Of a stretch of 64,000 nt of DNA, positions 2,892 through 46,459 are shown piece by piece. A program made the position numbers and the translations under genes. Origin of the DNA: Actinernus sp. WN-2022 (taxonomy: Eukaryota > Cnidaria > Anthozoa > Actiniaria > Actinernidae); the NCBI GenBank assembly GCA_030867875.1, contig JAOWCC010001634.1, positions 37,219,867 to 37,283,866 of the forward strand, written 5' to 3'. Below the pieces are notes generated by a model. The model was not told where the DNA came from. It ran no database searches and was given only the letters and a program-made list of their open reading frames with translations. Numbering within the stretch: position 1 is the first letter of the stretch; each line of letters opens with the position of its first letter.

Positions 2892-3217
2892 GGGTTGGTA
2901 ACGTTACCTGACGTATGGGGACACCTGACATATAGGGACGCCTGACATATGGGGACGTTATATAGGAAATCATGCAAACACATGCATGGACACGTATTAT
3001 AAGCCAATTATAACAAGCGTGTAGATTGTTCGCAGATGAGTTGATATTGGGCAGTTGTTCCAGATAATCAGTGCCATGCCCAGGGAAAGATTGGGGGAGG
3101 GGAGGGGAGGGTAACTTTACCACATTACGTTACCTGACATATGGGGACGCCTGACATATGGGGACGTTATATAGGAAAACATGCGAACACATGGACACAT
3201 ATTACAGGCCAATTGAC
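2892..3217 (+). repeat. Left arm: tandem units with CTGACATATGGGGACG
   Basis: Two partial units start at about 2902 and 3127. Each begins with CGTTACCTGAC, followed by two or three copies of the 16-mer and a spacer ending near ATTATAAGCCAATT. A G-rich tract (GGGGGAGGGGAGGGGAGGG) precedes the second unit. Confidence 0.65.
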
Positions 3218-3218
3218 C

Positions 3219-3548
3219 ATGGATGACTATCTGGCCATAGTAGAAGTCAAAAATAAAGGCCTCCTTTATGGTGTGACTATCTTTTCGAAAACACCTCAGT
3301 ATAACTTCTTCATCGTCATCTTCCATGAGGAGGTAAAGTCCGAAGAACGAATGCTTGAGACAATAATCCATGAAATGGCGCATGTACAGCACAGGGCCTC
3401 AGATCGCCACAGCGCAAGCCACGGAAAGGAGTTTCAGAAGATTGCCAGGTGCCTAACCCGTGATGTCATTACAAGACAAGCAGAACTGCCGAAGCCTTTC
3501 TGTGACATTTGTATAAACAAACAGAACATCTTAAAGGCGAGCTGTTAA
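3219..3548 (+). CDS. SprT-like zinc metalloprotease domain protein (small)
   Basis: The frame encodes about 109 residues from the ATG at 3219; an in-frame ATG at 3141 lies in the repeat arm and is less likely to be the start. The middle shows HEMAH (the HExxH zinc and catalytic motif), then SHGKEF some 12 residues on. This HExxH plus HG-x-x-F spacing is the hallmark of the SprT/Spartan-like metalloprotease family, which acts on DNA-protein crosslinks in characterised members. A CDIC pair near the C-terminus could be half of a zinc ribbon. The protein is shorter than full SprT proteins, so it may be a fragment or one exon of a captured host gene. Family assignment rests on the motif alone. Confidence 0.55.
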   Translation: MDDYLAIVEVKNKGLLYGVTIFSKTPQYNFFIVIFHEEVKSEERMLETIIHEMAHVQHRASDRHSASHGKEFQKIARCLTRDVITRQAELPKPFCDICINKQNILKASC

Positions 3549-4325: not shown

Positions 4326-4927
4326 GGCATCCGTATGTCAGGTAACGTAATGTGGTAAAGTTACTAATCCCTCCCCTCCCCAATCTTTTCCTGGGCATGG
4401 CACTTATTATCTGGAACAGCTGTCCAATATCAACTCATCTGCGAATAATCTACGCGCCGTTTTCCTACATAACGTCTCCATATGTCAGGCGTCCCCATAT
4501 GTCAGGTAACGTAATGAGGTAAAGCTACCCTCCCCTCCCCTACCCCCAATCTTTCCCTGGGCATGGCACTTATTATCTGGAACAGCTGCCCAATATCAAC
4601 TCATCACAATTGGCTTATAATACGTGACCATGTTTGGCATGTTTTCCTAGTTTTCTATCGTCCCCATATGTCAGGCATCCCCATATGTCAGGCGTCCCCA
4701 TATATATGTCAGGTAACATAATGAGGTAAAGTTACCCTCCCCTCCCCCCAATCTTTCCCTGGGCATGGCACTTATTATCTGGAGCAACTGCCCAATATCA
4801 ACTCATCACAATTAGCTTATAATACGTGTCCATGCATGTGTTTGCATGATTTCCTATATAACGTCCCCATATGTCAGGCGTCCCTATATGTCAGGCGTCC
4901 CTACACGTCAGGTAACGTTACCAACCC
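4326..4927 (-). repeat. Right arm: inverted tandem units
   Basis: Three to four units in reverse orientation to the left arm start near 4330, 4495, 4700 and 4905. Each carries TGTCAGGTAACGTAATG, a C-rich tract and TTCCCTGGGCATGGCACTTA. The reverse-complement 16-mer CGTCCCCATATGTCAG and variants occur about nine times. Confidence 0.65.
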
Positions 4928-6795
4928 CGCTCAATTATATTATATTTTGAGGTTCCTATTTTGATTTTTCCAGTTGGGTGAACAGAGACCAACAGGCAAT
5001 TAACAAATTTACGATTGTTTACCGTGGTATGTCATACATGTACAATGTACATGTCAACTTGTTACTTTATTATTTAAAAACGATATATATAGCCTAGCCC
5101 TAGGATTATAGCCATATGTTGTTTCCAAATATTAACTTACAGTTACATTGTAGTTTTAGTTATTTCAACTTGATCGAATCAAAAATGGTCCATCCCAATG
5201 CTTCTCACCTCTCTTATTATATCTGGTGTTCATTCGATAGTCCTAAACTATCTAGACTATATAATTCACTTACCAGCGATTTCTGCAGAAGGTTTGTCCG
5301 CATCGTAATACTCGAAGTCGATCTCTGGTGTTGTGTCTATTTGGCCCTACAAGAGAAAGAGAAATAATTTATGATCAAGAATAAAGACATGTCTTGCTAA
5401 CTAACCTGTTATACCTCTGATTCTCTCCTCTGTCGGCGTAGAATATCTCGTAGTTTAGGAATGCCTCTCGGCTTTCGGTCGATGCTCCCCTCCATTTTGA
5501 AGAGAAGTTGTGCAGTGTAACCACTCCTACTGTCTAGGCCGTGCGAATCACACGGAAGACTGAAATGTACCACAGGTAGCCCAAACACATGCGACGCATG
5601 TTTTAAAAGTCTCTGTCTTTGAAAAAAGATATTCAAATCAGAAACTTGAAATTTCTGCTTATTTTATATTAAAAGCTAAAAAGGAAGATATTAAACGGAC
5701 CTATTGGATTCATCCGCCTACCGGTTATCTAAGTGGTTTTAAAAAGTGCATATACTGCCCTGGCTAATTATATTTCTTACGAAGAGACTAGATGCCATAG
5801 ACAAAGGACTCAGGAATAAAATAAATAAAACGTTGATTTGATTTATTTGTCATGGTGTATTGGCCGTTCAAAGGTGCCTAAAAACGTGTCATGGATTGCC
5901 TGTGGACGAAAATCAAGCGCGCAAGATATTGGCACTGGGTCTAGTTTGACGTCATCAACAGAACACGCTCGATGCGCCATTGCATGAAAGGCCTTGCCGA
6001 ATAAAGCTCTCCGTAACGTTTAGCGCGATATTATCATCTCTCGGTTATGTATTCAATTTATTATAATATTTTGTAAATAAGCCAACGCTTTTAACTACCC
6101 GCGCAGAGACGAGTTCTGTTGAAGACGTCACGTTTTATTCTCGTCCCAGTCCCCGAACGTGCGCGGAAATTATTCTAAATTTGGAAGTTTAGTCGCTAAA
6201 AAAAATTTGAAAACATTTTTATTTAAAAATTTCGGATTTTTTCCCCTACCTGCTAAGGTCTTGACTTGAAAATTACTTTACTTTACTTTATCCGCACCCA
6301 ATATCGCAACAGATTTTATTTAGTCAAGACCAAAGGTCGAGCCTAAAATTAACAGTCGAGAAGTCAATGGATGAATCCTATAAGTGTTTCATTATACCGA
6401 ACAAATAAGACCATTATTTGTAAGGACCTCCTGGTAAGGTATAATAAAGCTGGTTGCAAAGTCTGCTAATTAAGTCCGGATAATTTCTTCCATATTTTAT
6501 GCTCCTCGAATTTTTCAGAATCACTTATTTCCAAATGCTCGATCTTTCACAACGGATAATGTTTTGTTTGTGACTTATTTCAGAAACAGAGAGCCGGCGT
6601 GGCGCTTTCTCCTTTTACATCGAAGGCCCGGGTTCGCACCCGGTCATGCCATGAAGGCAGTGATTCTTCTCAAGATGTAAAAACCTGGTTCTCTACATTG
6701 GGAACAGTGAATCCTTTGTGGCTCGGATGACCACATAAAATGGCGGTATCGTCTCCATAAATGGGGACGTAAATGAACCACTAAGGACGCAAACA
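4928..6795. other. Non-coding stretch
   Basis: No recognisable protein. The short open frames at 5116-5367 and 5409-5636 show no known motif and no supporting splice structure. At about 6600-6660 a segment with a B-box-like GGGTTCGCACCC may be an old tRNA-derived SINE. Confidence 0.4.
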
Positions 6796-7060
6796 ACCGC
6801 CGCCCGGTTAGCTCAGTGGTCAAGCTCCGGTCTGTTGAGCGGAAGCCGGGTCACGAGTTCAAACCCAAGCCAGCATGCACTCAGGGTCTTAAAATAACTG
6901 AGTAGAAGGTGCTGCTTTTGTGAAACAACTGCAAATAGTTAGATCTTCACGTCTTCTCGGATAGGAAGTAAAACCGTAGGTCCACTGACGGAGGCAGCCT
7001 AGAAGGGACCTTGAGTCCTATTGTTTGTACTCCTGTGATCAGGCTCTGATCTGAATGTCT
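6796..7060 (+). mobile_element. tRNA-derived SINE
   Basis: The head has a pol III A box (TTAGCTCAGTGGT) and B box (GAGTTCAAACCC), followed by the body GGGTCTTAAAATAACTGAGT, then AAGGTGCTGC and GTCTTCTCGGATA. The same body recurs after the tRNA-like head near 8865. No pairable acceptor stem closes the tRNA-like region, so this is a SINE and not a tRNA gene. Confidence 0.75.
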
Positions 7061-7790: not shown

Positions 7791-8002
7791 GCAACGCGAG
7801 TACTATTGGATCTGTAAAACGATAACTGATAATTTGATTAATAAAATAATTTGCATCAATAATTTGATAGTAATTTTTCTCGAGCGAGGCTAGAAGAGAA
7901 TTAAATAAAATACCGCAAATGAGGAGAAAGGCAAATTATAGGACGATATGAAGAGAAAAAAAAAAATCCTTTGACTAGCTTGAATTGTGTAGAACAATAC
8001 AG

Positions 8003-8059
8003 TGACGTCACCATAATATATACGTCATCGTGTTGATTACCAATTGTTTGCGCATGCGC
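8003..8059 (+). promoter_or_regulatory. Putative proximal promoter: CRE and NRF1-like sites
   Basis: A perfect CRE palindrome TGACGTCA lies at 8003-8010, a related ACGTCA at 8032-8037, and an NRF1-type TGCGCATGCGC at 8049-8059, about 40 bp before the start codon at 8101. The sites and their spacing suit a TATA-less promoter. Caution: GCGCATGCG also occurs in unrelated repeats in this window. Confidence 0.45.
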
Positions 8060-8100
8060 TAATGAGTTGTCAGGACGATTAGTCAGTGTTTGTTTTCACG

Positions 8101-8164
8101 ATGCTGAGGAAATGCAGCACATGGCTTCTACTCGCTTTCATTTTTTTTATTCTTTATACACGTG
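8101..8164 (+). CDS. Exon 1: signal peptide exon
   Basis: ATG at 8101; 21 codons plus one base. The peptide runs MLRKCSTW then a strongly hydrophobic stretch (LLLAFIFFILY), as in a signal peptide or signal anchor. The donor G|GTAAGT is at 8165. Confidence 0.65.
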
Positions 8165-11100
8165 GTAAGTACAAACATCACTTCAACTAATGACTATTGA
8201 TTGATTCATATGAATGTTTTAGATCATGATATATTTAATGTCTGATTGAACATTTTATTTTGTGATGCGTGACCAACGTAGTTTTATGTATTTTCAGTGG
8301 ACACCTCGATTGTTTGCCGCTTGTTTTTCCCGTTCGTCCCACGCCGTTTTTGGCTTTTTTGTCATGTAATTATTTGTGTATGTGTTCCTTGATTTTATAA
8401 TTAAGTCCAATTTTTTTTTCAAACCAAACGAATTGACCGATTTAGCTTGAACATTTGTTGTCCCAATTCAAATCACCTGACTATTCCCTTGAGTAATATT
8501 TTTTTCTCTTTCCCAAGAGGAAATGTACCAATTTCTCTAATTGGAAAACAAAGCATTAAATCCCCTGGAGAGCTGTCACATGATCTGAATTGGGACAACA
8601 AATGTACAAGCTAAATCGGTCTATTGAAACCGCCGTAAGAATGTACAGTTGGGGAAACCGTAACTTCTGAAAAGTGCGCGCGCAGCCAAACTGAGTATTC
8701 AAACAACGGACGTTAGCAACATGAATGACAAATTTATAATAAGTTAATTCTGCTAACAAATTTCGTGCCAAGGGAGGCAAAAATAGGCAGGATGCAATGC
8801 CGTTTGCTGAGAATGTTTCCATTTTAATGAACCTAAGCATATTAGGTCTGGACCGCCCCCCGGATAGCTCAGTTGTTAGAGCGCCGGTCTTCTTGTGCGG
8901 GAGATCGTGGGTTCAAACCCCGGTCGAACCAACACTCAGGGTCTTAAAAATAACTGAGGAGAAGGTGCTGCCTTTGCTCTAACATCTGATTATTTTAATC
9001 CAAACGTATGAAGGTTCGCCATAGGCCTTTGCAGGAAACAGTCACGTGCTGATATAATACTTCGTTAACGAATGAATTGATCATGGGAAAGGCTTTGCCA
9101 TGAACGCTGTTGTAGAAAGATCGACAATCTATTGGAGTTAAAAAATAACATTTGCAAACATATTTTGCTAATAACACTACCGATCTCGTAAAAGTGCTTT
9201 TAAATATATGAATTAAGATTTTGTTGCTACCCAGTATTCAGCCACATCATGATTGCATTCCTGCAAAATGGTCATTCACAGGATTATACCACGGATCATT
9301 GCTTAAATGACTTTTTTTCTGTTTCTTTTCTCAAGCAAAGAATATATCGCCTATGTTCGCAATCGCGGGCCTATTTTTATTGCTTATTGGCACTTTATCA
9401 TAAATTTATTACTAATACATGGCCACCAAGAATTTCAAGAGTGAATTGTCAGCTTGCGCTAATTATATTTTATGAAAAAAATATATGTAGGATTAGCAGC
9501 AGGAAAACAAAGCCATGAAGTAACCGTTGATAGATATGAAAGCGCATTTCCTCAGAACAAGATCAACTTTTGGGGAAATGAACGAGGACAGTTACAACAA
9601 AACAGCAATCAGGATAGACACAACAATGTTCTTGGCTCTACTCATGAACGGCAAGCACGTAATATCTGTAAGTATAAAGACACGGCTACACCAGTGATTT
9701 TTTGCATGGACGACGAGACTATTGAAACACGAAGTTCCGGTATAAATAGGTTAGCTCCTCCTCTTTTCACATATGGCGAGCTCGAATTGCGGTTCTCCCT
9801 GCATGTAGGTAGACATGAATTACTACCAAATCGTATTGTGTTCTATTGTATTGTGTATTTCGTTCTATTGTCTTGTATTGTGTTAATTCTATTGTATTTT
9901 GATAGCAATTCGTGTACTGCCTACATGAAGGGACCACCTGAATTGCTGAGCAGTGAAGAGAGCAAGCGAGCATATCAGCCTCTCCTTTGAAATGCTAGAT
10001 TTTTAAGGTTAAAATTAAACAAGCCATAAAATGTGACCAGAGGGAAGATAGTTGTCCATTTATGACAGACAATGGTATTTTATGACTGTTTGCGAACTCT
10101 GTAGCCCTTACTCTGAAACCAGTTAAACATTTTTTTGTGTTTCATTTGAATTTCTCGCGATAACCAATCAGTAGGGAGCACTCAAGCGAGGCATCACACA
10201 GATGTTCGTCCCCAGCGCGCGGTGAAAATCGCACGTGCCGTGAGCCACACTTCCACAGGCGACGCGACTGCTGAAAAAATCTCGGGGGGTAAAATCGCGA
10301 CAAAAGTACGTAGTTGTCACACGTGTAGCCGCCCTAAACCATTTACCCCCTCACCAGCGACGCGACATTAGCGTATCAGTCGGACAATAAATCGGGGCAA
10401 AAGTCATACCCAATCTTTCATGTATAGCGTGGCCTTCTTCCAACATTTGTCGCCAGAGTTTGTCGTCCGTATATGAACTGAACTTAATATCGTAGGTGTT
10501 ACCTTCCAGCAGGACTGTAAATTCTCTCCTCGTGTAAGCAAGAAACTTACGGAGGCGAACAAATGTCTTTTATCCTAAGATCCCTAAGAAAAGAAGGGTT
10601 GAACCAGTCAAAAATCGACCACTTTTTAAATTCTATAATAGTAACTAAGATAACTTATGGCCTACCTGTATACTCAAATGAGTTAGAAAATCTAAATGAG
10701 AAAAATAATTTGAAATGGATTCTGGTAGTTGTAGTCAAATGACATATTTGCAATCCTAGGGATATATATTTCTTAATTTGCATATTCAATGACACTTGAG
10801 GTTTAACTAATACCCTATTCACACCAAAACTTAAACATGCTTAAAAGCTGTTTAATTTTAAAAATAAGTTCAAAATAATAGCTGTTTACACAGCATGCTA
10901 GTTTCCAGCTTAAAACTGACATTTGTTGACAAAAATTGCTGTTCGCGGTATAGTTTTAACCCTATGACTAAACACATTCAAGACAAGAAAAATACAAAAC
11001 AATACAAAACAAAAAGCTGAACCGATCCCCAACAAAATTTGAGATAAAATAAATTTATTTTATTCAATCTCAATCAATATTCGGGATTTAGAGGCTTACC

Positions 11101-12886
11101 GAGGTAGGCTTTTCGTTCATGTAAGTTTTCTTTTACCGTAATGATATTGTATTTTTTGCAAAATTGGTGTACTTATGACCTCCATTGCTGCTTGTTTCGT
11201 TTCTTAATTCGATCAATATTCTCTTGCCACCTCAATCAATTCATAGCCCAATATTAATTGGGCTACCCCGCCACTTATTTTATTCTTTGTAAGATTACTA
11301 TTTATATTTGTGGCAATCAAATTAAACTGAAATTAAACTGATTTCGTACAGTCGACGATGCCAAGGAAAAAGTCCAAGCCACAACAGAAACTCTGAAATG
11401 GGTGAAGAAGAATTTCCGCTACTTAGCGCTCATGGCAGGAGCATTCTTGTTCCTGATATTCAGCTGTATGGCGTACAGGAGGTTTACCAGAGATGACGAA
11501 GAGTAAGTAGTTGGTGTTGTTGTAACATATGTGGACTCGATCGTAAGCGTTGTCCAGTAATAAATATAGATGTGTGAACGTATAAAAAACTTTTGGGTTG
11601 GGAGTTTTACAGCCATAGGTATATTAATATATATATATTAATGAGGTCGCTCCCTCAATGCTTGATCGAAATTATATGCAGTATTTTCCTGGAACTTTAT
11701 TTATACACAGTTTGTTAGTCATGTTTGCATATTTGCGGCATTGATTTAACCATCACACATGTGCGTTGGGCTCAGTTCATATGAAAATCGCTAAAAATAA
11801 CTGTCTCCACAGCCAGGACTACAAATATAAAGGTCTTTCACCATGACACATTTCCTTAAAAGATTACCTATGCAAGTTTGCAAGTTTTAATAACGATGAT
11901 GAAGACGATTCTATTGATGATTATGTTCATGATAATGATGATGACCTATAGTAGTTAACAATCATTATAACAATTTTATTCAATATTCATTCTAAAACAG
12001 TTACGACGATGAAGACCCGGGCGTGAAATATATAGTAATGGGTGGTACAAGAAGTGATAATCTACCAACATCAACACAAGTCGCACCTACACCACCACCA
12101 CGTCCTCCACCACCACGTCCCCCGCCACCGAACACAACCAACACAACAACTAAAAAAAACAAATCTAGAAAACCGACCAAGGCAGCGGCTAAGAAGACGA
12201 CACGAGTGAAACCAAATCCACCGAAGAATAAACCTAAGGCAAACAAACCCAGAAATACCAAACCAACGATAGGAAGAGGCACAGGACTAAAAAATGTAAT
12301 CTGTGATTACGTATCGATCGCAATAACAACTGGCAGTGACGAAGAACGATGTGACACAATACACAACGTCACAGACGACACTGTCAACTGCGCATGCTCC
12401 AACAGTGGTAACATCAATGGGAAGATCTTTAGTGACGTCACTTTAGATGATAACGCTAAGGAATGCGCACGTGCAAATGATGGTTATTCTCTCGAATTCA
12501 TTTCAAGAATGTTCTCAAAAGTATTTGAGAAATCAAGTGAATCACGGCTCTCTTCGGATCTGAAGAATGGTGTTATCAGCATCGTAAACGAAGGCATTCC
12601 TGTATCATGCCACACCGTCATGCTACAAATGCATGTTGCAGATATTGACATGAATGGCCATCGAAGTGACTCAAGGCGCTATCTCTTCGAGACGAGAACG
12701 CTGGCCCATGAATTGCATGCTCAGGACCGAGCTTTTAACGGGAGTACGAGCCAGGGTCCGTTTCCTGTGTTTGGCGAGTTGAGGATTAACAAATGCTTAT
12801 CGGAATCGCTGCTAGAAAGGTGTTGGAAATATTATCCAAGAGCATCCACGATGACAAACCTTCCTATCACTGCTACAGCTTCGTGA
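8101..12886 (+). CDS. Four-exon gene for a predicted membrane protein (unknown family)
   Basis: Proposed exons are 8101-8164, 9491-9667, 11352-11502 and 12001-12886, total 1278 nt (425 residues plus stop). Every junction has GTAAGT-type donors and AG acceptors, and the phases (1, 1, 2) join without a stop. The N-terminus is a basic-hydrophobic signal peptide or anchor. Residues of about 23-80 are polar (Q/N-rich). A transmembrane helix lies at about 104-122 (core LALMAGAFLFLIFSCMA), followed by basic residues and an acidic patch (128-136). Next come a proline run (about 160-174) and a K/P-rich segment. The last 200 residues contain several cysteines and one NVT sequon. AATAAA follows 73 bp after the stop. 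I recognise no domain. If the first segment is cleaved, the C-terminal part is probably cytoplasmic, but topology is open. Exon 2 is symmetric (177 nt) and could be skipped. Further undetected exons are possible. Confidence 0.6.
8435..8621. mobile_element. Foldback MITE in intron 1
   Basis: About 36-bp terminal inverted repeats: the left begins GACCGATTTAGCTTG and the right ends CAAGCTAAATCGGTC, with one mismatch just inside that segment. The interior is only about 115 bp and does not code. Confidence 0.7.
8857..8990 (+). mobile_element. tRNA-derived SINE (truncated) in intron 1
   Basis: An A box (TAGCTCAGTTGTTAGAGCG) and B box (GGGTTCAAACCCC) are followed by the same body as the 6.8-kb SINE (CACTCAGGGTCTTAAA, then GAGAAGGTGCTGCC). 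The tail is cut short after the TTTGCTCTAACATCTG region. The acceptor arms do not pair, so it is not a functional tRNA gene. Confidence 0.75.
9491..9667 (+). CDS. Exon 2: symmetric phase 1-1 exon
   Basis: Acceptor TATATGTAG| and donor |GTAAGTATAAAG bound 177 nt with a single open frame that matches the phase left by exon 1. It encodes about 59 polar residues rich in Q, N, H and R without cysteine, presumably the lumenal or extracellular stalk. Being symmetric, it could be alternatively spliced. Confidence 0.55.
11352..11502 (+). CDS. Exon 3: transmembrane exon
   Basis: The acceptor TTTCGTACAG precedes TCGACGATGCC, and the donor is GA|GTAAGTAG; read through, the frame stops at once (GAG TAA). 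It encodes a charged lead-in, the single transmembrane helix and a stop-transfer RRF motif. Confidence 0.65.
12001..12886 (+). CDS. Exon 4: acidic, Pro-rich, Lys-rich tail and C-terminus
   Basis: The acceptor TTCTAAAACAG precedes exon 4, whose first base completes the aspartate codon split from exon 3. It encodes YDDEDPG, three proline runs separated by arginines, a K/P-rich stretch and a globular-looking C-terminal part with about ten cysteines. The stop is TGA at 12884-12886. Confidence 0.65.
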
Positions 12887-12958: not shown

Positions 12959-12964
12959 CAATAA
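12959..12964 (+). terminator. Polyadenylation signal AATAAA
   Basis: A canonical AATAAA lies 73 bp beyond the stop of exon 4, in the right place to end the four-exon transcript. Confidence 0.55.
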
Positions 12965-13074
12965 AGTGCGTGCTTTAAAATCAATTGTCCTGCTTTAATT
13001 TCTAAAGCCGATGATGTACGGTTCAATATTGTTTTGCCAACATCGTTCAACATTGTTGGCAACAAATGTCGAGC

Positions 13075-13450
13075 CGTGTCTCATACCATGTGGAATGTCT
13101 GAAAGAAGCGAGTCAACATGCTGAACCGTGTATCATACCATGTGGAATGTTGAAAGAAGCGAGTCAACATGTTGAACCGGCCGTGTATCATACCATGTGG
13201 AATGTCGAAAGAAGCGAGTCAACATGTTGAACCGTGTATCATACCATGTGGAATGTTGAAAGAAGCGAGTCAACATGTTGAACCGTGTATCATACCATGT
13301 GGAATGTTGAAAGAAGCGAGTCAACATGTTGAACCGTGTATCATACCATGTGGAATGTTGAAAGAAGCGAGTCAACATGTTGAACCGAGTCAACATGTAG
13401 AACCGTGTATCATACCATGTGGAATGTCGAAAGAAGCGAGTCAACATGTT
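13075..13450 (+). repeat. 51-bp minisatellite, about 7 copies
   Basis: The unit (GTGTATCATACCATGTGG, then AATGTTGAAAGAAGCGAGTC, then AACATGTTGAACC) starts at 13128, 13183, 13234, 13285, 13336 and 13405, with a diverged copy before. Because 51 is divisible by 3, long open frames appear on both strands; they are repeat artefacts and not genes. Confidence 0.9.
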
Positions 13451-14084
13451 CTTTAATCTTTAAATATGATAATTGCCTGGTAGCGGTGGAGCTAATCTGG
13501 CAATGAAATTGTCAGCGGTCGTGCAAGTACTGAGGTTACGGTGCAATAAGTGATAATAAGTTAAAGTATTATAGTGCATGGTGAAGTGCAATGTTCAATG
13601 TTCAATGACTAGTAATCAGAGTGCAAATGGCGGCAAAAGGATAAAAATAACCATTATAATAATAATTCATAAGCTGGTAAACAACAGCATGAGCTTACAT
13701 ATAAAGAGATAATGACTGCCGCCACACAGGCGTCTCCAGTGACGGTGCAGCTATCAATCGATAAGGGGCTCCGATGACAACAGCTACGCCGCCACCACAG
13801 CGCGAGCGCGACCGCAGCCAATATTACTAATTGGTTGAGATTACACATACATGGATACGCCAGTTTGGAAGCTATTCAAAGATGTAGCTGTAGATGTTGA
13901 ACGACGTTGCAACTTGTTGAACTGCTAGAATAAAGAATCTCTATTTCCTGCAACATCGTTCAACATGTTGACTCGCTTCTTTCAACAGTCAACGTGGTAT
14001 GATACCAGGTTCAACGTTTGTTGCCAATAAATCAGGCAAATGTTTCCGGTTGGCAACAAATGTTGAATGGTGTATATCATCGGC

Positions 14085-14948
14085 TACCCTGGGTACCAGA
14101 GGTTCTACTGTCTCCATTCGCTAAAGTTAGGCGCCGAGGAGCGAAGCGACGAGAACCTCTGGCGGCACGGATAGCCAATCTCACTTCCATGTTCGAATTT
14201 GGTACAGAATTTGTACCAGGCTTATTATTGGTTAGTTATAATTAGGAATGATATCCGTCGATATGACTGGCTAGATAACTTAGCGAACGAAAAACCGGTT
14301 TTAGATTTACATTTAATCAAGATGACGACAGAAGACTCCATGCAAAAGTATTTCTCTGAAGCAGTTTCTGTAACATTCAAAGTCACTTTTCCCAGAGATC
14401 GAAAATCTCAAACCTCAACAAGATTAGTCAATTTTGAAATTCACGCAGAAGATGTTTTTGCTGTGCTGCTTACTGGTTGGGGAAAGTCTTTGGTGTTTGA
14501 AATGATTCCCGCGTAGCGTTCGATTCGTGGTCTGCATTGTCCTCAGAAAGCCACTGTTATAGTTGCGTGTCCTTTAAATTCACTTGTGGAATCACACATT
14601 AGAGAGCTGGAGAGTCGAGGAATCAAGGCATGTTCGCTATAAAGCAGGTTTCGGTCCAGGTTTCAGTGGAGTCTTTTGCATTATCTGAATTTCGAACACA
14701 CAAGTAGTCGGCACGTGTAGCGCAAATCAGTGGTGCGGAAAAGTGTAAACATGTATTTGACACCTAACAGACGTCATGACTGCAAAACCGGTTATTTGAG
14801 AAATGTGATACTAGTTCGAACATGGAAGTGAGATTGGCTATCCGTGCCACCAGAGGTTCTCGTCGCTTCGCTCCTCGACTGTCGTCGCTTCGCTCCTCGG
14901 CGCCTAACTTTCGCGAATGGGACAGTAGAACCTCTGGTACCCAGGGTA
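14085..14948 (+). mobile_element. Mutator-like element carrying a RecQ-helicase fragment
   Basis: Terminal inverted repeats of about 115 bp begin TACCCTGGGTACCAGAGGTT; the right arm has a 22-bp internal duplication. Exact 9-bp direct repeats ATCATCGGC flank it at 14076-14084 and 14949-14957. A 9-bp duplication with long TIRs is typical of Mutator-like elements. Its cargo is a helicase fragment rather than a transposase, as in Pack-MULEs. A 98-bp element with the same ends lies at 26630-26727. Confidence 0.75.
14199..14642 (+). pseudogene. RecQ-like helicase fragment with in-frame stop
   Basis: The frame reads to 14516 and carries TGWGKS, a Walker A-like nucleotide-binding motif in the context DVFAVLLTGWGKSLVF that is typical of RecQ-family helicases. 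A TAG at 14514-14516 interrupts it, but the same frame goes on with ATVIVACPLNSLVESHIREL (helicase motif Ia region) to TAA at 14640-14642. The DExH box and all C-terminal motifs are missing. It is a captured, decayed 5' fragment. Confidence 0.7.
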
Positions 14949-33470: not shown

Positions 33471-34159
33471 AAACACGATAACAAAAGCCACAACACGATA
33501 ACAAAAGCCACAACACGATAACAAAAGCCACAACACGATAACAAAAGCCACAACACGATAACAAAAGCCACAACACGATAACAAAAGCCACAACACGATA
33601 ACAAAAGCCACAACGCGATAACAAAAGCCACAACGCGATAACAAAAGCCACAACGCAAAAACAAAAGCCACAACGCAAAAACAAAACTCACAACGCAAAA
33701 ACAAAACTCACAACGCAAAAAACAAAACTCACAACGCAAAAACAAAAGCCGCAACGCAAAAACAAAAGCCGCAACGCATAAACAAAAGCCGCAACGCAAA
33801 AACAAAAGCCGCAACGCAAAAACAAAAGCCGCAACGCAGAAACAAAAGCCGCAACGCAAAAACAAAACTCACAACGCAAAAACAAAACTCACAACGCAAA
33901 AACAAAACCCAAACGCAAAAACAACAACGCAAAAACAAAAGCCGCAACGCAAAAACAAAAGTCTCAACGCAAAAACAAAAGTCGCAACGCAAAAACAAAA
34001 GTCACAACGCAAAAACAAAACTCACAAGCAAAAACAAATCCACAACGCAAAAACAAATCCACAACGCAAAAACAAAACTCACAAGCAAAAACAAATCCAC
34101 AACGCAAAAACAAATCCACAACGCAAAAACAAAACTCACAACGCAAAACGCAAAACGCA
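33471..34159 (-). repeat. 20-bp minisatellite next to the Penelope fragment
   Basis: Read on the minus strand, about 34 units of TTGTGGCTTTTGTTTTTGCG and variants change, near the Penelope side, to TTGTGGCTTTTGTTATCGTG. The unit has no stop in any frame, so cysteine- and phenylalanine-rich open frames run through it in all three frames. These are not taken to be genes. One runs on into the Penelope coding sequence. Confidence 0.9.
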
Positions 34160-34175
34160 GACAAGGCATGGTCAC

Positions 34176-36209
34176 TTGGCTCAACCTCGTTCCTATGTTC
34201 TTTTCGGGGAATGTGCCAAGATGGCCGTTTGTATGATCTTGTTTTTTCTCGCGATCGTGTTATATCAGTTTGGTTCGGTAAATACTTTGCCCGCATGCCC
34301 TTTTCTGTGTGACTTCGCTACACTTGAAGATTGTATACGTGCCTACTGGAGTATTGGCTACACGTTTGCAAGCATGGTGACGTTTCTTTATGTCTATCAC
34401 GGTGTTAATTGTACCATACGTCAGTTGAGATACCTTGTAAACGGTAAACCATAAATTTTCCCTGAAAAGAAGAGGAAACCAAACCGCGGTTCATGATATT
34501 AGGTGAGCCATCAATGCAGAATTAAATGGACCTGGACGTTTGATGGGTTACCGCGCGATGACACGATGTCTCGTCATAATATAAGAGTATCCCGAGATAC
34601 CGTTATGCAGCTTCTTAAAGAAGCTGACCCTGTTGGAGTAAACAACAGGAGGGCAAGACGACTACAAAGACGCGTTTACCGCTGCCCAGGCCCAAATGCT
34701 ACATGGCATATCGACGGCTACGACAAACTGTCTCCATTTGGTTTTGGAATAAGTGGTTGCATCGATGGTTATTCTAGAAGGATAATCTTTTTAGAAATTG
34801 CTCATAGTAATCACGACCCTTCGTTGATTGCTGGTTATTATGCACCTATCAATGTTAAGACGCAGGGGGGGGGGGGGGGGGGGGGGGAGGCCGGGCATAG
34901 GCGGGGGATTTGAACTGAGATGACTTTTTCTGTTCAAATGCACGTCCCCAGGGAAATTGTCATTGGTCAAAAGAGTATCAATTGCCCCGCCTCCAACAAC
35001 AGACATTTGTCAAATGAATGAACCAGAAAAAATACAAAAATATAATGTTTATTGAACAACGATCGTCAATTTCACGTTAACATACTGTGTCAGTTCGAAC
35101 TATTAAATTCATTTCATATGTACTCTGTGTGATTTGAATGAAATAGGCGATGAACTGCACTACTTTTCTAGCTGTAATAATAGTAAGTTAGACTGAGAAC
35201 TTAGAAATGTGTTTCTATAAAGGTTAAAAACTGAGTCATCACTCTATTTGAACGAAGGTCTTTCTTATGAGTGCTTCGAGATCGGCCATATCTCCACGTT
35301 GGATTACAGCCTCTTTCCGAGATTCGCCAAATTTAAGCAGCACCTATAACAAAATGCTAACGGTCAGACAAGAGCTGCTTTGTTATGCTTTGTTATGTAA
35401 ATGTTGACCTTTCAAAACCGCATCAATTATTTAAGTAAGTTTATTAAAAATGAAATAGGGTCAAATGTCAGTTATTTATAGGTCTAAAAAGATTTTAAGT
35501 CTTGCTTCGTTGGGACACTTCTTCAAATTATCCAGCTTGTTCGCAGCCATTTTGAAGCGTGACGAACCTACTTCCCAGCTGTCTCTGCGCCCTTAATCCA
35601 AGATGGCGTCTTGGTTGGGGCCCAGGCCTCCAACCGGTCAAAAGTCAAAAGACCCGACCCTGGGCTTCGACAGACGATCAAAATTTCCCATCACGGACAG
35701 ACTTCCTATGTCAAATCCCCTGCCTATGCCCGGCCTCCCCCCCCCCCCTGCGGCTTAACATTGATAGGTGCATTACATGAGTGGTGTTAGCCAGTTAGGG
35801 GGCTGTCCAAGAACTGTCCGGACAGGCTGTGGAACTGAAAATGTTATCATAGCAGCATTACAGCATGTTTTTCATGAAAACACCCCCAATACTCAAGCTC
35901 AACAAATGAATGGGCACAGGTATGGCACATCAACAGCTAATCAAAGGATAGAGGCATGGTGGTCCAACTTTAGAAAATCAAGGAGTGAGTGGTGGATAGA
36001 ACTATTCAAAGATTTAGCTGAGTCGGGGGCATTTTGCCATGGCAACATAATCCATGTTTACTGTCTAAGGTATTGCTTCATGGATGTTTTACAAAAAGAA
36101 CTGGACAATATTGCAAGTTCTTGGAATGAGCATCGCATTAGACAAAGCCACATGGCCGAATGTCCAGGGGGTATCCCTGATGAGTTGTTTTTCCTTCCAG
36201 AGAATTCAG
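34176..36209 (+). pseudogene. Integrase-core (DDE/rve) gene, interrupted
   Basis: Three blocks appear: an N-terminal piece (34317-34440, LEDCIRAYWSIGYTFAS, then GVNCTIRQLRYLVNG); the first integrase half (34515-34845, GPNATWHIDGYDKLSPFGFG, then CIDGYSRRIIFLEI); and the second half (35773-36209, LGGCPRTVRTGCGTENV, then STANQRIEAWWSNFRKSR). It resembles integrase-core proteins common in cnidarian and lancelet genomes. The first Asp (HID) and the Glu (QRIE) are present. The second Asp expected before CGTEN is Gly. An element at 34845-35768 splits the core, and the halves are out of frame by one. A possible donor CAG|GTAATT lies at 36210. It is judged inactive. Confidence 0.7.
34845..35768. mobile_element. 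Inverted-repeat element inside the integrase gene
   Basis: CACCTATCAATGTTAAG near 34843-34859 is matched in reverse at 35754-35770, followed inward by a G-run or C-run and GGCCGGGCATAGGCGGGGG (inverted at the right). TGCA lies on both sides (34841-34844 and 35769-35772), a possible 4-bp duplication. The left G-run is 23 bases (34865-34887). The interior does not code. Confidence 0.65.
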
Positions 36210-36289
36210 GTAATTTGTTTGTGCTATTGCTGGTTTGTATACATGTGTCATTTGATGTCATTACCACCATTTTGATTGATGTTTAAATA

Positions 36290-42757: not shown

Positions 42758-45401
42758 TACTATGTTCATTCGATCAGCCGGACGCTGAACGAGAGTGGCG
42801 TCTTTGGCCAGAGGTGTTTTAATACTGACCAAGTTCGGGGGGCTAAGAAGGACTGAGAAAGTCTATGACCAAGTGTCCACTACTGTAATTGATATAATTA
42901 TTATAGCTTAACAACCAGAGCATTTTTCAATCAGGGATGTCAGTAAATAGCCAATCATCAACCAAAGTAACGTCATGATTGGTTTTAGAAAGGTAAACGC
43001 GATTGATTAAAAACATTGACTTTAGTGTGGCATTTGATTGGCTGACTTATTTGGATGGTCTATGATTAGTAGAAAAGTATTCAAGTAACCAATGTTAAAG
43101 TTTCGTACAGCTTTTCGCAGAGCTGTAATTGTTCAAGTTTTGTTCATATTGGATATACTGTTAGGAAATGCTAGCCACGTGGTCGTACTGTATGGCAAAC
43201 ACATCAGAAAGAAACTCGAAAGAGATTTGGTCGTGTTATTAACAACTGGCCTATTTGTAAATTATGTTTTCCACCTCCGATAGATTGTCGATGCGTTCTT
43301 AATGTGATGTATCAGCACGTGACTGTTAAATGCGTGATGAGTAGGAAATATTCTTCATTTACTGCACATAGCAATTTTGTAATGCGTGATTTGCATGATA
43401 GCATCATGATACTACAACTACCATAATTACTAATTAATTTAATTCAACTTAAACAATTTAATTTAGACCATTGTTTTGGTATTCTCAGAGGAGTTAATAT
43501 ATGAATAACAAAAATTCGAAAAGGATCGTACGGGTAGTTGCAGTATAATGTCATCATGCAAATCGCTTTTTCAGTTATTGGGTACATTTATTGCATAATT
43601 GCAAATAGCTTAACAATCATAGAGCGGTTTTCAATAACGGAATCAAGAAAAATGACAACTAAAGTAAAGTCATGATTGGTTTTAGAAAGCAACAACAAGC
43701 AGGGTAACCAGAAGGAAATTGCAAAACAATCACTGAATCACTTTAAACACACTGTGAAAACCGCGCTATTACAAATGTTGACATGCAACTGTGCTCCTTT
43801 GGAATCTGAGATCTACAAATTCAGGCCAGTCTAGTTTCCTTTTATAACAATACATGTAAAAAGAATTGATCTATCATTAAGCCAATGTACAATATTTATG
43901 AGTTTAAAATAAAGTTGCAGCCTATTTACGTTTTGATTGTGCAGGTTGTGTTGTGTTCTGTGCCATTTTTTTTTTTTCATTTTTTTGGGGGGGGGGGGGG
44001 GGAGGGGGGGAGATGTGTGGATGTGACCGAAGAGTTGTCAAGAGTTCCATGGCACGTTTTTTTCTTATTCTCCATACTAAAATAAATAGTACTAGAAAGT
44101 GCGAGAGGAGTATGTTGCATTGTTCGGATATACTCCGAACGAAAAACCGAATAAGTACCTGCTGATTATAAACCACAGATCGAAATAAAAGTTCGGGGGG
44201 TGAAGAAACATAGGGCCCCTAAGGGCAACTCGCTTATGATCAGCGAGCAATTTTGGCATATACTAAAAACACGTCTCCGATGAATAAAAGTTCAGAGTAG
44301 AAATTCAGAGTACGTCATCAGTAAGTGATTTATGGGGGGACCCAATACCATGCCTGTCCACGTTCAGTACCTGTCTGGCATAAGAAATTAGATATGGTAT
44401 GTATTTCAAATCATGTGACCGTTTACATCATCGTTGCGTCATCGCAACTAAATTATTGACAGGGATCCACTACCATGTCTGTCCAGGTTTGAGCCACCTG
44501 CAAGTAATCTTAAGCGAATTAGCCATGAAAATTTAATATCGTGAACATATTCTGAACATGGTACGAATTTTGCTAACATATATTACGGCATTCGGAAATG
44601 AAAATCCACCCAACCCCGATAACTCATCCTGCGCATGCGCACATCCACGAGTTAACACTGGGTAACCCCCCAAATAAACTCGTATGTTGAGTGGTTTCAC
44701 TTAACCGGTGAACCAATATCTAATAGTGTGTATCTAATAGTCGAACAGGAACAAAAGAAAACAATAGCATTAGGGTATAATATAATTGTGACTATTAGTC
44801 TAGGTTTAGTGAAATCACAAGTCACATGTGTGACGTCACTGGATCTGCGCATTTATATTCGTCTCCAGAAATACTACAAAATAAGTGCATTTTTGGGGCA
44901 ATTTTCAATTTAAATGTCTTACTTTGAGAAACCTTGACGGTGTCCATAATTTTTCTAATAGAAGCCTTGCAGTCACACATATTTTTACTTTTGTGAATAT
45001 AAATGTTGCAGACCTAGTGACGTCACACGTGATTAGCAGAACTTTAACGGCATAAAAATTGTCGTCTGATTTTGGCAATTATGCCTGACTTCGATACGAA
45101 ATAAAATTATGTTCACACTCCAACTGAAATTGATTTTAATTACACAAAATGGCTAAGGGAAGCCTAGAATTTAATAAAATAATAACGGTATCCGTTTTTT
45201 CATTTCATTGGCACTTTAACCCTGGCCATAGCATTTGAATTTCAAGTTCCGCTTTTGATAACGTTACGGAGGTGTTCTTGTAGTTAGATTTCATCAGATA
45301 AAAAAAAAACGGGCTTAAGTGGCGTTAAATGGATTTTTTTTCGCAGTGTATTTCATTGACTTTAATAATGGCTGCTTCATGCTAAGCTATATTTCAGTTT
45401 T
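42758..45401. other. Non-coding stretch
   Basis: No protein is recognised. A G-run with one A lies at 43987-44010. GGCACT-TTAA near 45210 looks like the right end of a TTAA element, but I found no matching left end. Confidence 0.4.
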
Positions 45402-46060
45402 TTTTGCGTTGTGAGTTTCGTTTTTGCGTTGTGAGTTTTGTTTTTGCGTTGTGGCTTTTGTTTTTGCATTGTGGCTTTGTTTTTGCGTTGTGGCTTTGTT
45501 TTTGCGTTGTGGATTTGTTTTTGCGTTGTGGCTTTTGTTTTTGCGTTGCGACTTTTGTTTTTGCGCTGTGGCTTTTATTTTTGCGTTGTGGCTTTTGTTT
45601 TTGCGTTGCGACTTTTGTTTTTGCGTTGTGGCTTTTGTTTTTGCGTTGTGGCTTTTGTTTTTGCGTTTTTGTGGCTTTTGTTTTTGCGTTGTGGCTTTTG
45701 TTTTTGCGTTGTGGCTTTTGTTTTTGCGTTTTTGTGGCTTTTGTTTTTGCGTTGTGGCTTTTGTTTTTGCGTTGTGGCTTTTGTTTTTGCGTTGTGGCTT
45801 TTGTTTTTGCGTTGTGGCTTTTGTTTTTGCGTTGTTGCTTTTGTTATCGTGTTGTGGCTTTTGTTATCGTGTTGTGGCTTTTGTTTTCGTGTTGTGCATG
45901 GCTTTTGTTATCGTGTTGTGGCTTTTGTTATCGTGTTGTGGCTTTTGTTATCGTGTTGTGGCTTTTGTTATCGTGTTGTGGCTTTTGTTATCGTGTTGTG
46001 GCTTTTGTTATCGTGTTGTGGCTTTTGTTATCGTGTTGTGGCTTTTGTTATCGTGTTTTG
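45402..46060 (+). repeat. 20-bp minisatellite, second copy
   Basis: About 32 units of TTGTGGCTTTTGTTTTTGCG and then TTGTGGCTTTTGTTATCGTG run in the direction opposite to the 33.5-kb array. They end at the same border (TTTTGTCCATACCGGCCACC). All three forward frames stay open for about 230-256 codons because the unit holds no stop. Just beyond lie short telomere-like CCCTAACCCT stretches (46089-46117). Confidence 0.9.
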
Positions 46061-46459
46061 TCCATACCGGCCACCGTACCAAACAATGCCTAACCCTGAA
46101 ACAATACAAACCCTAACCCTAAAACAATGTAATTCTTTGTCAGTGCAGTCCAACTGGGGTCCAATAAAATGCAAGGTTTTGAGAGGTGAAGAGCTGCTTT
46201 TGGTATGAGGCTATTGTCGGAGTAGAATTTATAGTTGATGAAATGGTGTTGGTATATAACGGACGAGTTTTAACTGGATGCGTTTAGTGGCGTTGAAAAG
46301 CACAGTAAATTTAGGTATCAGCAGGTTATAATCAGTTGCAGTGTCCATTAGAGTGCCAGGAGACGGACTAGGGCCAGGATTCAGTTCGCAAAACTCGCTA
46401 AATAGAAAGCTTTTACCCTAAAAAAACATTGTAATTGTAAACTGGACCGATACTTACTG

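What the first reader, a model, noticed from the sequence alone, without database searches (positions are those of the whole stretch)
8101..12886. Uncharacterised four-exon membrane-protein gene
Four exons join with correct phases, consensus splice sites, a CRE/NRF1-like promoter and a polyadenylation signal. This is the only apparently intact multi-exon host gene in 64 kb. The product (signal, Q/N-rich stalk, one transmembrane helix, acidic patch, proline runs, K/P-rich stretch, cysteine-bearing C-terminus) matches no family I know and could be lineage-restricted.
Basis: partly seen in the sequence, partly recalled or inferred. Interest (0 to 1): 0.75.

Follow-up and report, generated by a model that had tools for sequence, protein, structure and literature searches.

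The report
Orphan sea-anemone-type membrane protein gene
A real-looking four-exon gene from a sea-anemone-like animal encodes a small membrane protein with no recognisable relative in the collections searched; it is probably one of the many lineage-restricted genes of such animals, and its function has not been shown.

Summary
The four-exon structure is present as described: 425 codons, three GTAAGT donors, matching phases, upstream stop, AATAAA. Such a chain appeared in 0 of 1000 simulated sequences and 0 of 224 other real tiles. Exon 2, exon 3 and the cysteine domain found only themselves in the 1.39 Gb genome, so this is no transposon frame. A 280-bp piece at exon 4 recurs in four tandem ~9-kb units 170-197 kb downstream, ended by a stop codon. 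No family matched in Pfam, PDB, 5.8 billion proteins, viral or prokaryotic contigs; no animal genomes could be searched. Two corrections: a second host gene, the start of a STRIP1/2 orthologue, lies head to head; and the source has sea-anemone-type mitochondrial gene order, not that of stony corals. Best reading: a lineage-restricted, signal-peptide, single-pass membrane protein with a polyproline docking tail. Topology and function are inferred. Interest is modest.

The parts
8002..8059 (+). Promoter-proximal words: CRE palindrome GTGACGTCAC (8002-8011), TACGTCA (8021-8027), NRF1-like GCGCATGCGC (8050-8059)
   Evidence: factor names are recalled, binding not tested
8101..8164 (+). Exon 1: start codon, signal-peptide-like MLRKCSTWLLLAFIFFILYTRG; donor GTAAGT
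9491..9667 (+). Exon 2: 59 codons, Q/N-rich; length divisible by 3, so skipping it keeps the frame (366 aa); extra in-phase acceptors at 9497/9500/9503; in-frame ATG at 9472 just upstream
11352..11502 (+). Exon 3: membrane-proximal segment, TM helix (residues 104-122), first part of acidic patch
12001..12886 (+). Exon 4: rest of acidic patch, PPPRPPPPRPPPP (residues 162-174), K/P-rich stretch, 199-residue domain with 8 cysteines, stop 12884-12886
11978..12257 (+). Segment (23 bp of intron 3 plus 5' part of exon 4) that recurs at 72-81% nucleotide identity in four tandem ~9-kb units at G000:C685:37401.9-37430.2 kb
12960..12965 (+). AATAAA polyadenylation signal
5415..5495 (-). Neighbouring host gene, head to head: exon 1 of a STRIP1/2 orthologue (MEGSIDRKPRGIPKLRDILRRQRRESE)
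5274..5346 (-). Exon 2 of the STRIP1/2 orthologue (GQIDTTPEIDFEYYDADKPSAEIA), donor GTAAGT; a frame with an N1221 match lies about 6.8 kb left of the window

Best explanation
This is a functional, probably lineage-restricted nuclear gene of a sea-anemone-type hexacoral. Shown: four exons with consistent phases, a signal-peptide-like start, one further hydrophobic helix, a DDEDYDDED patch, PPPRPPPPRPPPP, a K/P-rich stretch and an 8-cysteine domain found once in the genome. Inferred: exon 1 directs the chain into the secretory pathway and is cleaved near residue 24; the Q/N-rich segment of about 75 residues faces outward; residues 104-122 stop the transfer; the remaining ~300 residues lie in the cytosol. 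There the acidic and polyproline segments would dock SH3-, WW- or EVH1-type or profilin-like partners, and the C-terminal domain would carry the specific, unknown activity. In short, a small surface protein tethering a scaffold tail.
For: Intact spliced frame. Chain of this kind in 0 of 1000 simulations and 0 of 224 real tiles. Open frame longer than the longest in each of 200 null sequences, and period-3 signal in exon 4. Exon 2, exon 3 and the C-terminal domain match only themselves genome-wide, so not a repeat frame. The copies in the tandem units stay open in the same frame for 76 codons, with dN/dS 0.63-0.78 against the gene. Signal-like and TM segments by hydropathy. No family match.
Against: No transcript evidence. 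dN/dS 0.63-0.78 over 74 aligned codons of low complexity is weak and not far from neutral. The exon 2 acceptor is poor and exons 2 and 3 have alternative in-phase acceptors. Exons 2 and 3 on their own show no strong period-3 signal. The topology is disputed by the protein itself: the flank before the TM helix is at least as positive as the one after it (4 against 3 K/R in 15 residues, net +3 against -5), and 8 cysteines and two N-glycosylation sequons in the last domain would suit an extracellular domain. The structure prediction of the C-terminal domain had mean pLDDT 31.9 and says nothing. Ligands of the polyproline run are inferred from general knowledge only.
Confidence: 0.45

Rival explanations
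1. Same gene, opposite topology: the start codon at 9472 just before exon 2 (an isoform without exon 1) gives a type II protein with the Q/N-rich part inside and the T/P/K-rich stalk and a disulfide-bonded 8-cysteine domain outside, as a ligand, adhesion or matrix protein.
For: ATG 9472 is in frame and gives a 410-aa protein without a signal peptide; 8 cysteines, an even number, in the last 199 residues; sequons NVT and NGS there; more positive flank before the TM helix; weak exon 2 acceptor.
Against: Exon 1 has a strict GTAAGT donor, correct phase, an upstream stop and a typical signal-like sequence, which would be wasted. The sequon count after the TM helix (5) is near the shuffled mean (3.7).
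Confidence: 0.3
2. The gene has orthologues, for example in other sea anemones, that are too divergent for or absent from the collections searched, so it is not lineage-restricted in a strict sense. This does not exclude the two readings of the topology; its odds are counted apart.
For: No held collection is a set of animal genomes; the window's own assembly has no relatives in the tool. The control search found reverse transcriptases at up to 76% identity, so some related DNA is in the protein set, but not necessarily hexacoral host genes.
Against: Nothing at E up to 10 with either half of the protein among 467 and 120 candidates, no Pfam or PDB match.
Confidence: 0.5
3. A decaying or non-functional locus, or chance frames joined by eye.
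For: A partial copy of exon 4 exists elsewhere in truncated form; the surroundings are rich in repeats; weak acceptor of exon 2.
Against: Intact over 425 codons with three strict donors; 0 of 1000 and 0 of 224 null chains; long frame.
Confidence: 0.1

Closest known systems
Taxonomically restricted ('dark') genes of cnidarians
   Same: No recognisable domain, host gene structure, membrane/secretory features; such genes are described as common in sequenced genomes and as many in stony corals (PMC6158316, start of abstract in listing; PMC13044578, abstract and outline)
   Different: Restriction to a lineage was not testable here; PMC13044578 concerns conserved dark families of stony corals, this is one gene of another hexacoral group
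Single-pass receptors and adaptors with polyproline cytosolic tails (recalled, general class)
   Same: Signal peptide, TM helix, acidic juxtamembrane patch, PPPRPPPPRPPPP
   Different: No sequence relation to any found; the best PDB hits cover the proline run only (Rho GTPase-activating protein 1, E 0.22)
Minicollagens (cnidarian capsule proteins; recalled)
   Same: Signal peptide, polyproline run, cysteine-bearing end
   Different: No minicollagen cysteine pattern and no Gly-X-Y run; a TM helix is present

Membership tests
Intact protein-coding nuclear gene | Continuous frame over phase-consistent exons with splice consensus | tested here: met
Intact protein-coding nuclear gene | Transcribed and spliced | not testable with these tools
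   no RNA data on hand
Intact protein-coding nuclear gene | Purifying selection on the frame | tested here: inconclusive
   dN/dS 0.63-0.78 over 74 codons of low complexity
Taxonomically restricted gene | No homologue outside a clade | tested here: inconclusive
   no match, but no animal genomes were searchable
Transposable element frame | Many copies in the genome, or known TE domain | tested here: not met
   exon 2, exon 3 and C-domain match only themselves; no TE domain
Minicollagen | CRD with C-x3-C-x3-C-x3-C-x3-CC and collagen Gly-X-Y repeats (recalled) | tested here: not met
Type I single-pass membrane protein | Cleaved signal peptide, one TM helix, C-terminus in cytosol | tested here: inconclusive
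   hydropathy supports signal and TM; orientation ambiguous by charge and cysteine content
STRIP1/2 (neighbour gene, not the finding) | STRIP N-terminal motif and N1221 domain | tested here: met
   PDB chain 7k36_I, striatin-interacting protein 1, E 0.0015; N1221 at E 2.4e-4 in one further frame, but below Pfam's own cut-off, 20.8 of 27 bits; two family searches of the genome did not complete

The most novel reading that the evidence does not exclude
The 199-residue, 8-cysteine C-terminal domain is a new fold or at least a new domain family born in the sea-anemone lineage, displayed by a membrane anchor next to STRIP1/2; the linker part of its exon was once copied from genomic DNA and later amplified as a tandem array.
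Probability: 0.15. Interest if true: 0.45.

Novelty: new member of a known kind. Interest (0 to 1): 0.25.

Why it matters
Genes without recognisable relatives are common and some are tied to lineage traits. This one is well delimited, found once in its genome and has a conserved neighbour (STRIP1/2) that gives a synteny anchor to look for its orthologues even if the sequence has diverged beyond search. On its own it is an ordinary orphan gene.

Tried and rejected
Transposon frame: rejected, exons match only themselves. Minicollagen: rejected. Viral or prokaryotic origin: the exon 4 frame found no relative in viral contigs or genome contigs (close relatives only, by six peptide patterns); PHROGs gave nothing better than E 0.11 for the C-domain and 0.03 for the exon 3 frame. 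Mito_fiss_reg, E3_UBR4_N and YiaAB, E 0.02 on the exon 3 frame: below the curated cut-offs, taken as composition matches. Rho GTPase-activating protein 1 and others in the PDB: E 0.22 or worse, mostly proline-run matches. Fold of the C-domain: mean pLDDT 31.9 from a single sequence, so no fold search was made. A coding gene in the tandem units: the best tblastn matches of exons 1, 2 and 3 in the 60 kb were E 0.36, 0.89 and 0.32, no DNA match outside the exon 4 segment, and the copies stop after 76 codons; taken as fragments. RNA gene: no Rfam family at the gathering score and no tRNA in the window. Naming the species: the mitochondrial length of 15,968 bp equals that of Solenosmilia variabilis in a table of PMC7693180 (passages), but base composition (42% G+C against 34.7 in the table) and gene order do not fit, so dropped. 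A DNA search of the whole genome with exon 4 was sent 12 times and never answered, so further decayed copies cannot be excluded.
Full report
The observation. They join into 1278 nt, 425 codons plus a stop, phases 0, 1, 1 and 2, each of the three donors GTAAGT and each acceptor AG. A stop lies in frame at 8080, upstream of the start, and AATAAA at 12960. The CRE and NRF1-like words are at 8002, 8021 and 8050; such words occur elsewhere in the window too (5 GTGACGTCAC, 3 GCGCATGCGC), so they add little. Factor names are recalled.

Chance. In 200 first-order Markov sequences of 64 kb the longest open frame averaged 156 aa and never passed 236 aa; exon 4 lies in a frame of 296 aa. The window holds other frames of similar length, among them a retroelement frame and simple repeats, so length alone is not enough. 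I therefore asked how often a first exon with ATG and two internal exons of 90-300 nt, all with GTAAGT donors, form an open chain that ends in the phase exon 4 needs. The real 4.1 kb upstream gives 33 variants of such a chain, 21 with a signal-like and a TM-like stretch; 0 of 1000 simulated regions and 0 of 224 real tiles (window and 60 kb downstream, both strands, tiles at the gene left out on its strand) give any. The rule was set after seeing the gene, which flatters it, and it misses genes with weaker donors such as the neighbour below. Period-3 composition: 12 of 1052 windows exceed exon 4, one of them overlapping it; exons 2 and 3 are exceeded by 6% and 10% of windows, the C-domain by 3%. 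Weak points are the purine-rich acceptor of exon 2 and in-phase alternatives at 9497, 9500, 9503, 11373 and 11379. Exon 2 can be skipped without loss of frame.

Copies in the genome. The window is C685:37219867-37283866 of a 1.39 Gb assembly in 1772 contigs; C685 is 149 Mb long. Frames with exon 2 and exon 3 match only themselves; the C-domain has one further hit at E 0.36, not significant. The exon 4 frame has four further matches at 73-81% identity, from its residue 2 to residue 77-84 of 296 (the tool calls such counts lower bounds). They sit in a tandem array with spacings of 8.95, 8.95 and 9.99 kb, whose units are 94.7-99.4% identical in the pieces over 500 bp, 169-197 kb downstream of the gene. 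Each holds a segment related to window 11978-12257, that is 23 bp of intron 3 and the 5' part of exon 4, at 81% identity in its first 248 columns and 72% in the overlapping rest. Because intron bases are included, the copy was probably made from genomic DNA and not from mRNA. In the copies the frame ends at a stop after 76 codons, and no counterparts of exons 1-3 were found in the 60 kb (best E 0.36, 0.89 and 0.32). The copies were aligned to the gene as codons, so gaps of whole codons are by construction; dN/dS is 0.63-0.78 with 9.5-10.5 synonymous and 20.5-22.5 nonsynonymous differences: compatible with weak constraint, not proof. A DNA search for more decayed copies did not complete (12 tries, the last).

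Relatives elsewhere. Pfam gave only sub-threshold matches for the whole protein, none for the C-domain alone and a sub-threshold one (YiaAB, E 0.02) for the exon 3 frame. The PDB gave matches at E 0.22 or worse, the best over the proline run, and none for the C-domain up to E 10. Two searches of 5.8 billion proteins, one with residues 220-425 (467 candidates) and one with 1-152 (120 candidates), found nothing at E up to 10. As a control, a reverse transcriptase frame of the same window found 5257 proteins at E up to 1e-20 among 7984 scored, the best 76% identical, so related DNA is represented to some degree; it does not show that hexacoral host genes are. The exon 4 frame found nothing in prokaryote genomes or viral contigs and the C-domain nothing below E 0.1 in PHROGs. 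No collection of animal genomes was searchable, so 'lineage-restricted' stays an inference.

The host. The assembly's COX1 lies on a contig with two copies 15,968 bp apart and 133 of 133 tested bases repeated at that distance, taken as the mitochondrial genome in concatemer. Reading the frames by eye, with names from recall except COX1, the order is cox1, nad4L, atp8, atp6, nad5 5', nad1, nad3, nad5 3', a tRNA with tca anticodon (Trp in this code), nad2, a gap for the small rRNA, cox2, nad4, nad6, cob, tRNA-Met, a gap for the large rRNA, cox3. This is the order given for most Actiniaria in PMC9213748 (passages). In stony corals cob, nad2 and nad6 usually lie within the nad5 intron (passage of PMC10167242), which is not so here. 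That other hexacoral orders share the Actiniaria order is recalled. Against a plain sea anemone: the mitochondrial genome is shorter than the 16,389 bp given as the smallest there, and its 42% G+C is nearer to the 43.9% of zoanthids than to the 38% of Actiniaria (protein-coding genes, PMC3989238); but zoantharian genomes were estimated at 286-678 Mbp (PMC10586311, passages), far below 1.39 Gb. So the source is a sea-anemone-type hexacoral; order and species stay open.

The neighbour. On the minus strand, head to head and 2.6 kb away, two exons (5495-5415 and 5346-5274) encode MEGSIDRKPRGIPKLRDILRRQRRESE-GQIDTTPEIDFEYYDADKPSAEIA. They match STRIP1 of PDB entry 7k36 at E 0.0015, and a frame about 6.8 kb left of the window matches the N1221 domain of that family at E 2.4e-4, below Pfam's cut-off.

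The protein. Residues 1-24 look like a signal peptide (n-region MLRKCST, h-region WLLLAFIFFILY, possible cleavage after GLA; judged by eye). Residues 25-99 hold 16 N/Q. Residues 104-122 are the TM helix; 123-137 hold 8 D/E; 162-174 read PPPRPPPPRPPPP; 174-226 hold 17 K/R and no D/E; 227-425 hold 8 cysteines with spacings 15, 12, 1, 22, 47, 61 and 8. If the signal peptide is cleaved, the C-terminal 300 residues are cytosolic and the polyproline run would be a docking site. The cysteines, the two sequons and the charge on either side of the TM helix would also suit the reverse, and an in-frame ATG at 9472 would provide it. I prefer the first at 0.45 and give the second 0.30. A single-sequence AlphaFold model of the C-domain has mean pLDDT 31.9 and is not used.

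Verdict. The structure is confirmed and very likely a real gene; it is an orphan within what could be searched; its function is open. Papers: PMC13044578 abstract and outline; PMC9213748, PMC10167242, PMC3989238, PMC7693180 and PMC10586311 passages only; others in search listings only.

Noticed in passing
window 5274-5495 (-): First two exons of a STRIP1/2 (striatin-interacting protein) orthologue, head to head with the finding; a further matching frame lies left of the window.
   Followed up: yes
window 3138-3548 (+): SprT-like metalloprotease fragment (Pfam PF10263, E 3.9e-7) flanked by inverted clusters of the 17-bp unit CCTGACATATGGGGACG (2907-3166 and 4473-4912), which suggests a mobile element that carries it.
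   Followed up: partly
window 13020-14085: Element with a 51-bp minisatellite (about 6 copies) and inverted arms 74-91% complementary, just downstream of the finding's polyadenylation signal; outer ends judged by eye.
   Followed up: no
window 14085-14948: Foldback element with arms of 28 nt 100%, 39 nt 97% and 63 nt 98% complementary.
   Followed up: no
window 8862-8960 and 6801-6920: tRNA-derived SINE-like sequences with a similar tail (read by eye); one lies in intron 1 of the finding. ARAGORN calls no tRNA in the window.
   Followed up: no
G000:C685:37399655-37435722 (loci L006-L010): Tandem array of ~9-kb units, 94.7-99.4% identical, four of which hold a fragment of the finding's exon 4.
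   Followed up: partly
window 34503-34910 and 35768-36286 (+): Two pieces with an integrase core domain (Pfam PF24764, E 5.9e-14 and 7.5e-16).
   Followed up: no
window 33622-34454 and 45386-46208: Long simple-repeat arrays that keep several frames open (QKPQRKNKSHNAKTKA / CGFCFCVVAFVFALWLLFLR).
   Followed up: no
G000:C144 (loci L019-L023): Mitochondrial genome with a repeat length of 15,968 bp, 42% G+C and an uninterrupted COX1 frame, shorter than the 16,389 bp given as the smallest of sea anemones in PMC9213748.
   Followed up: partly
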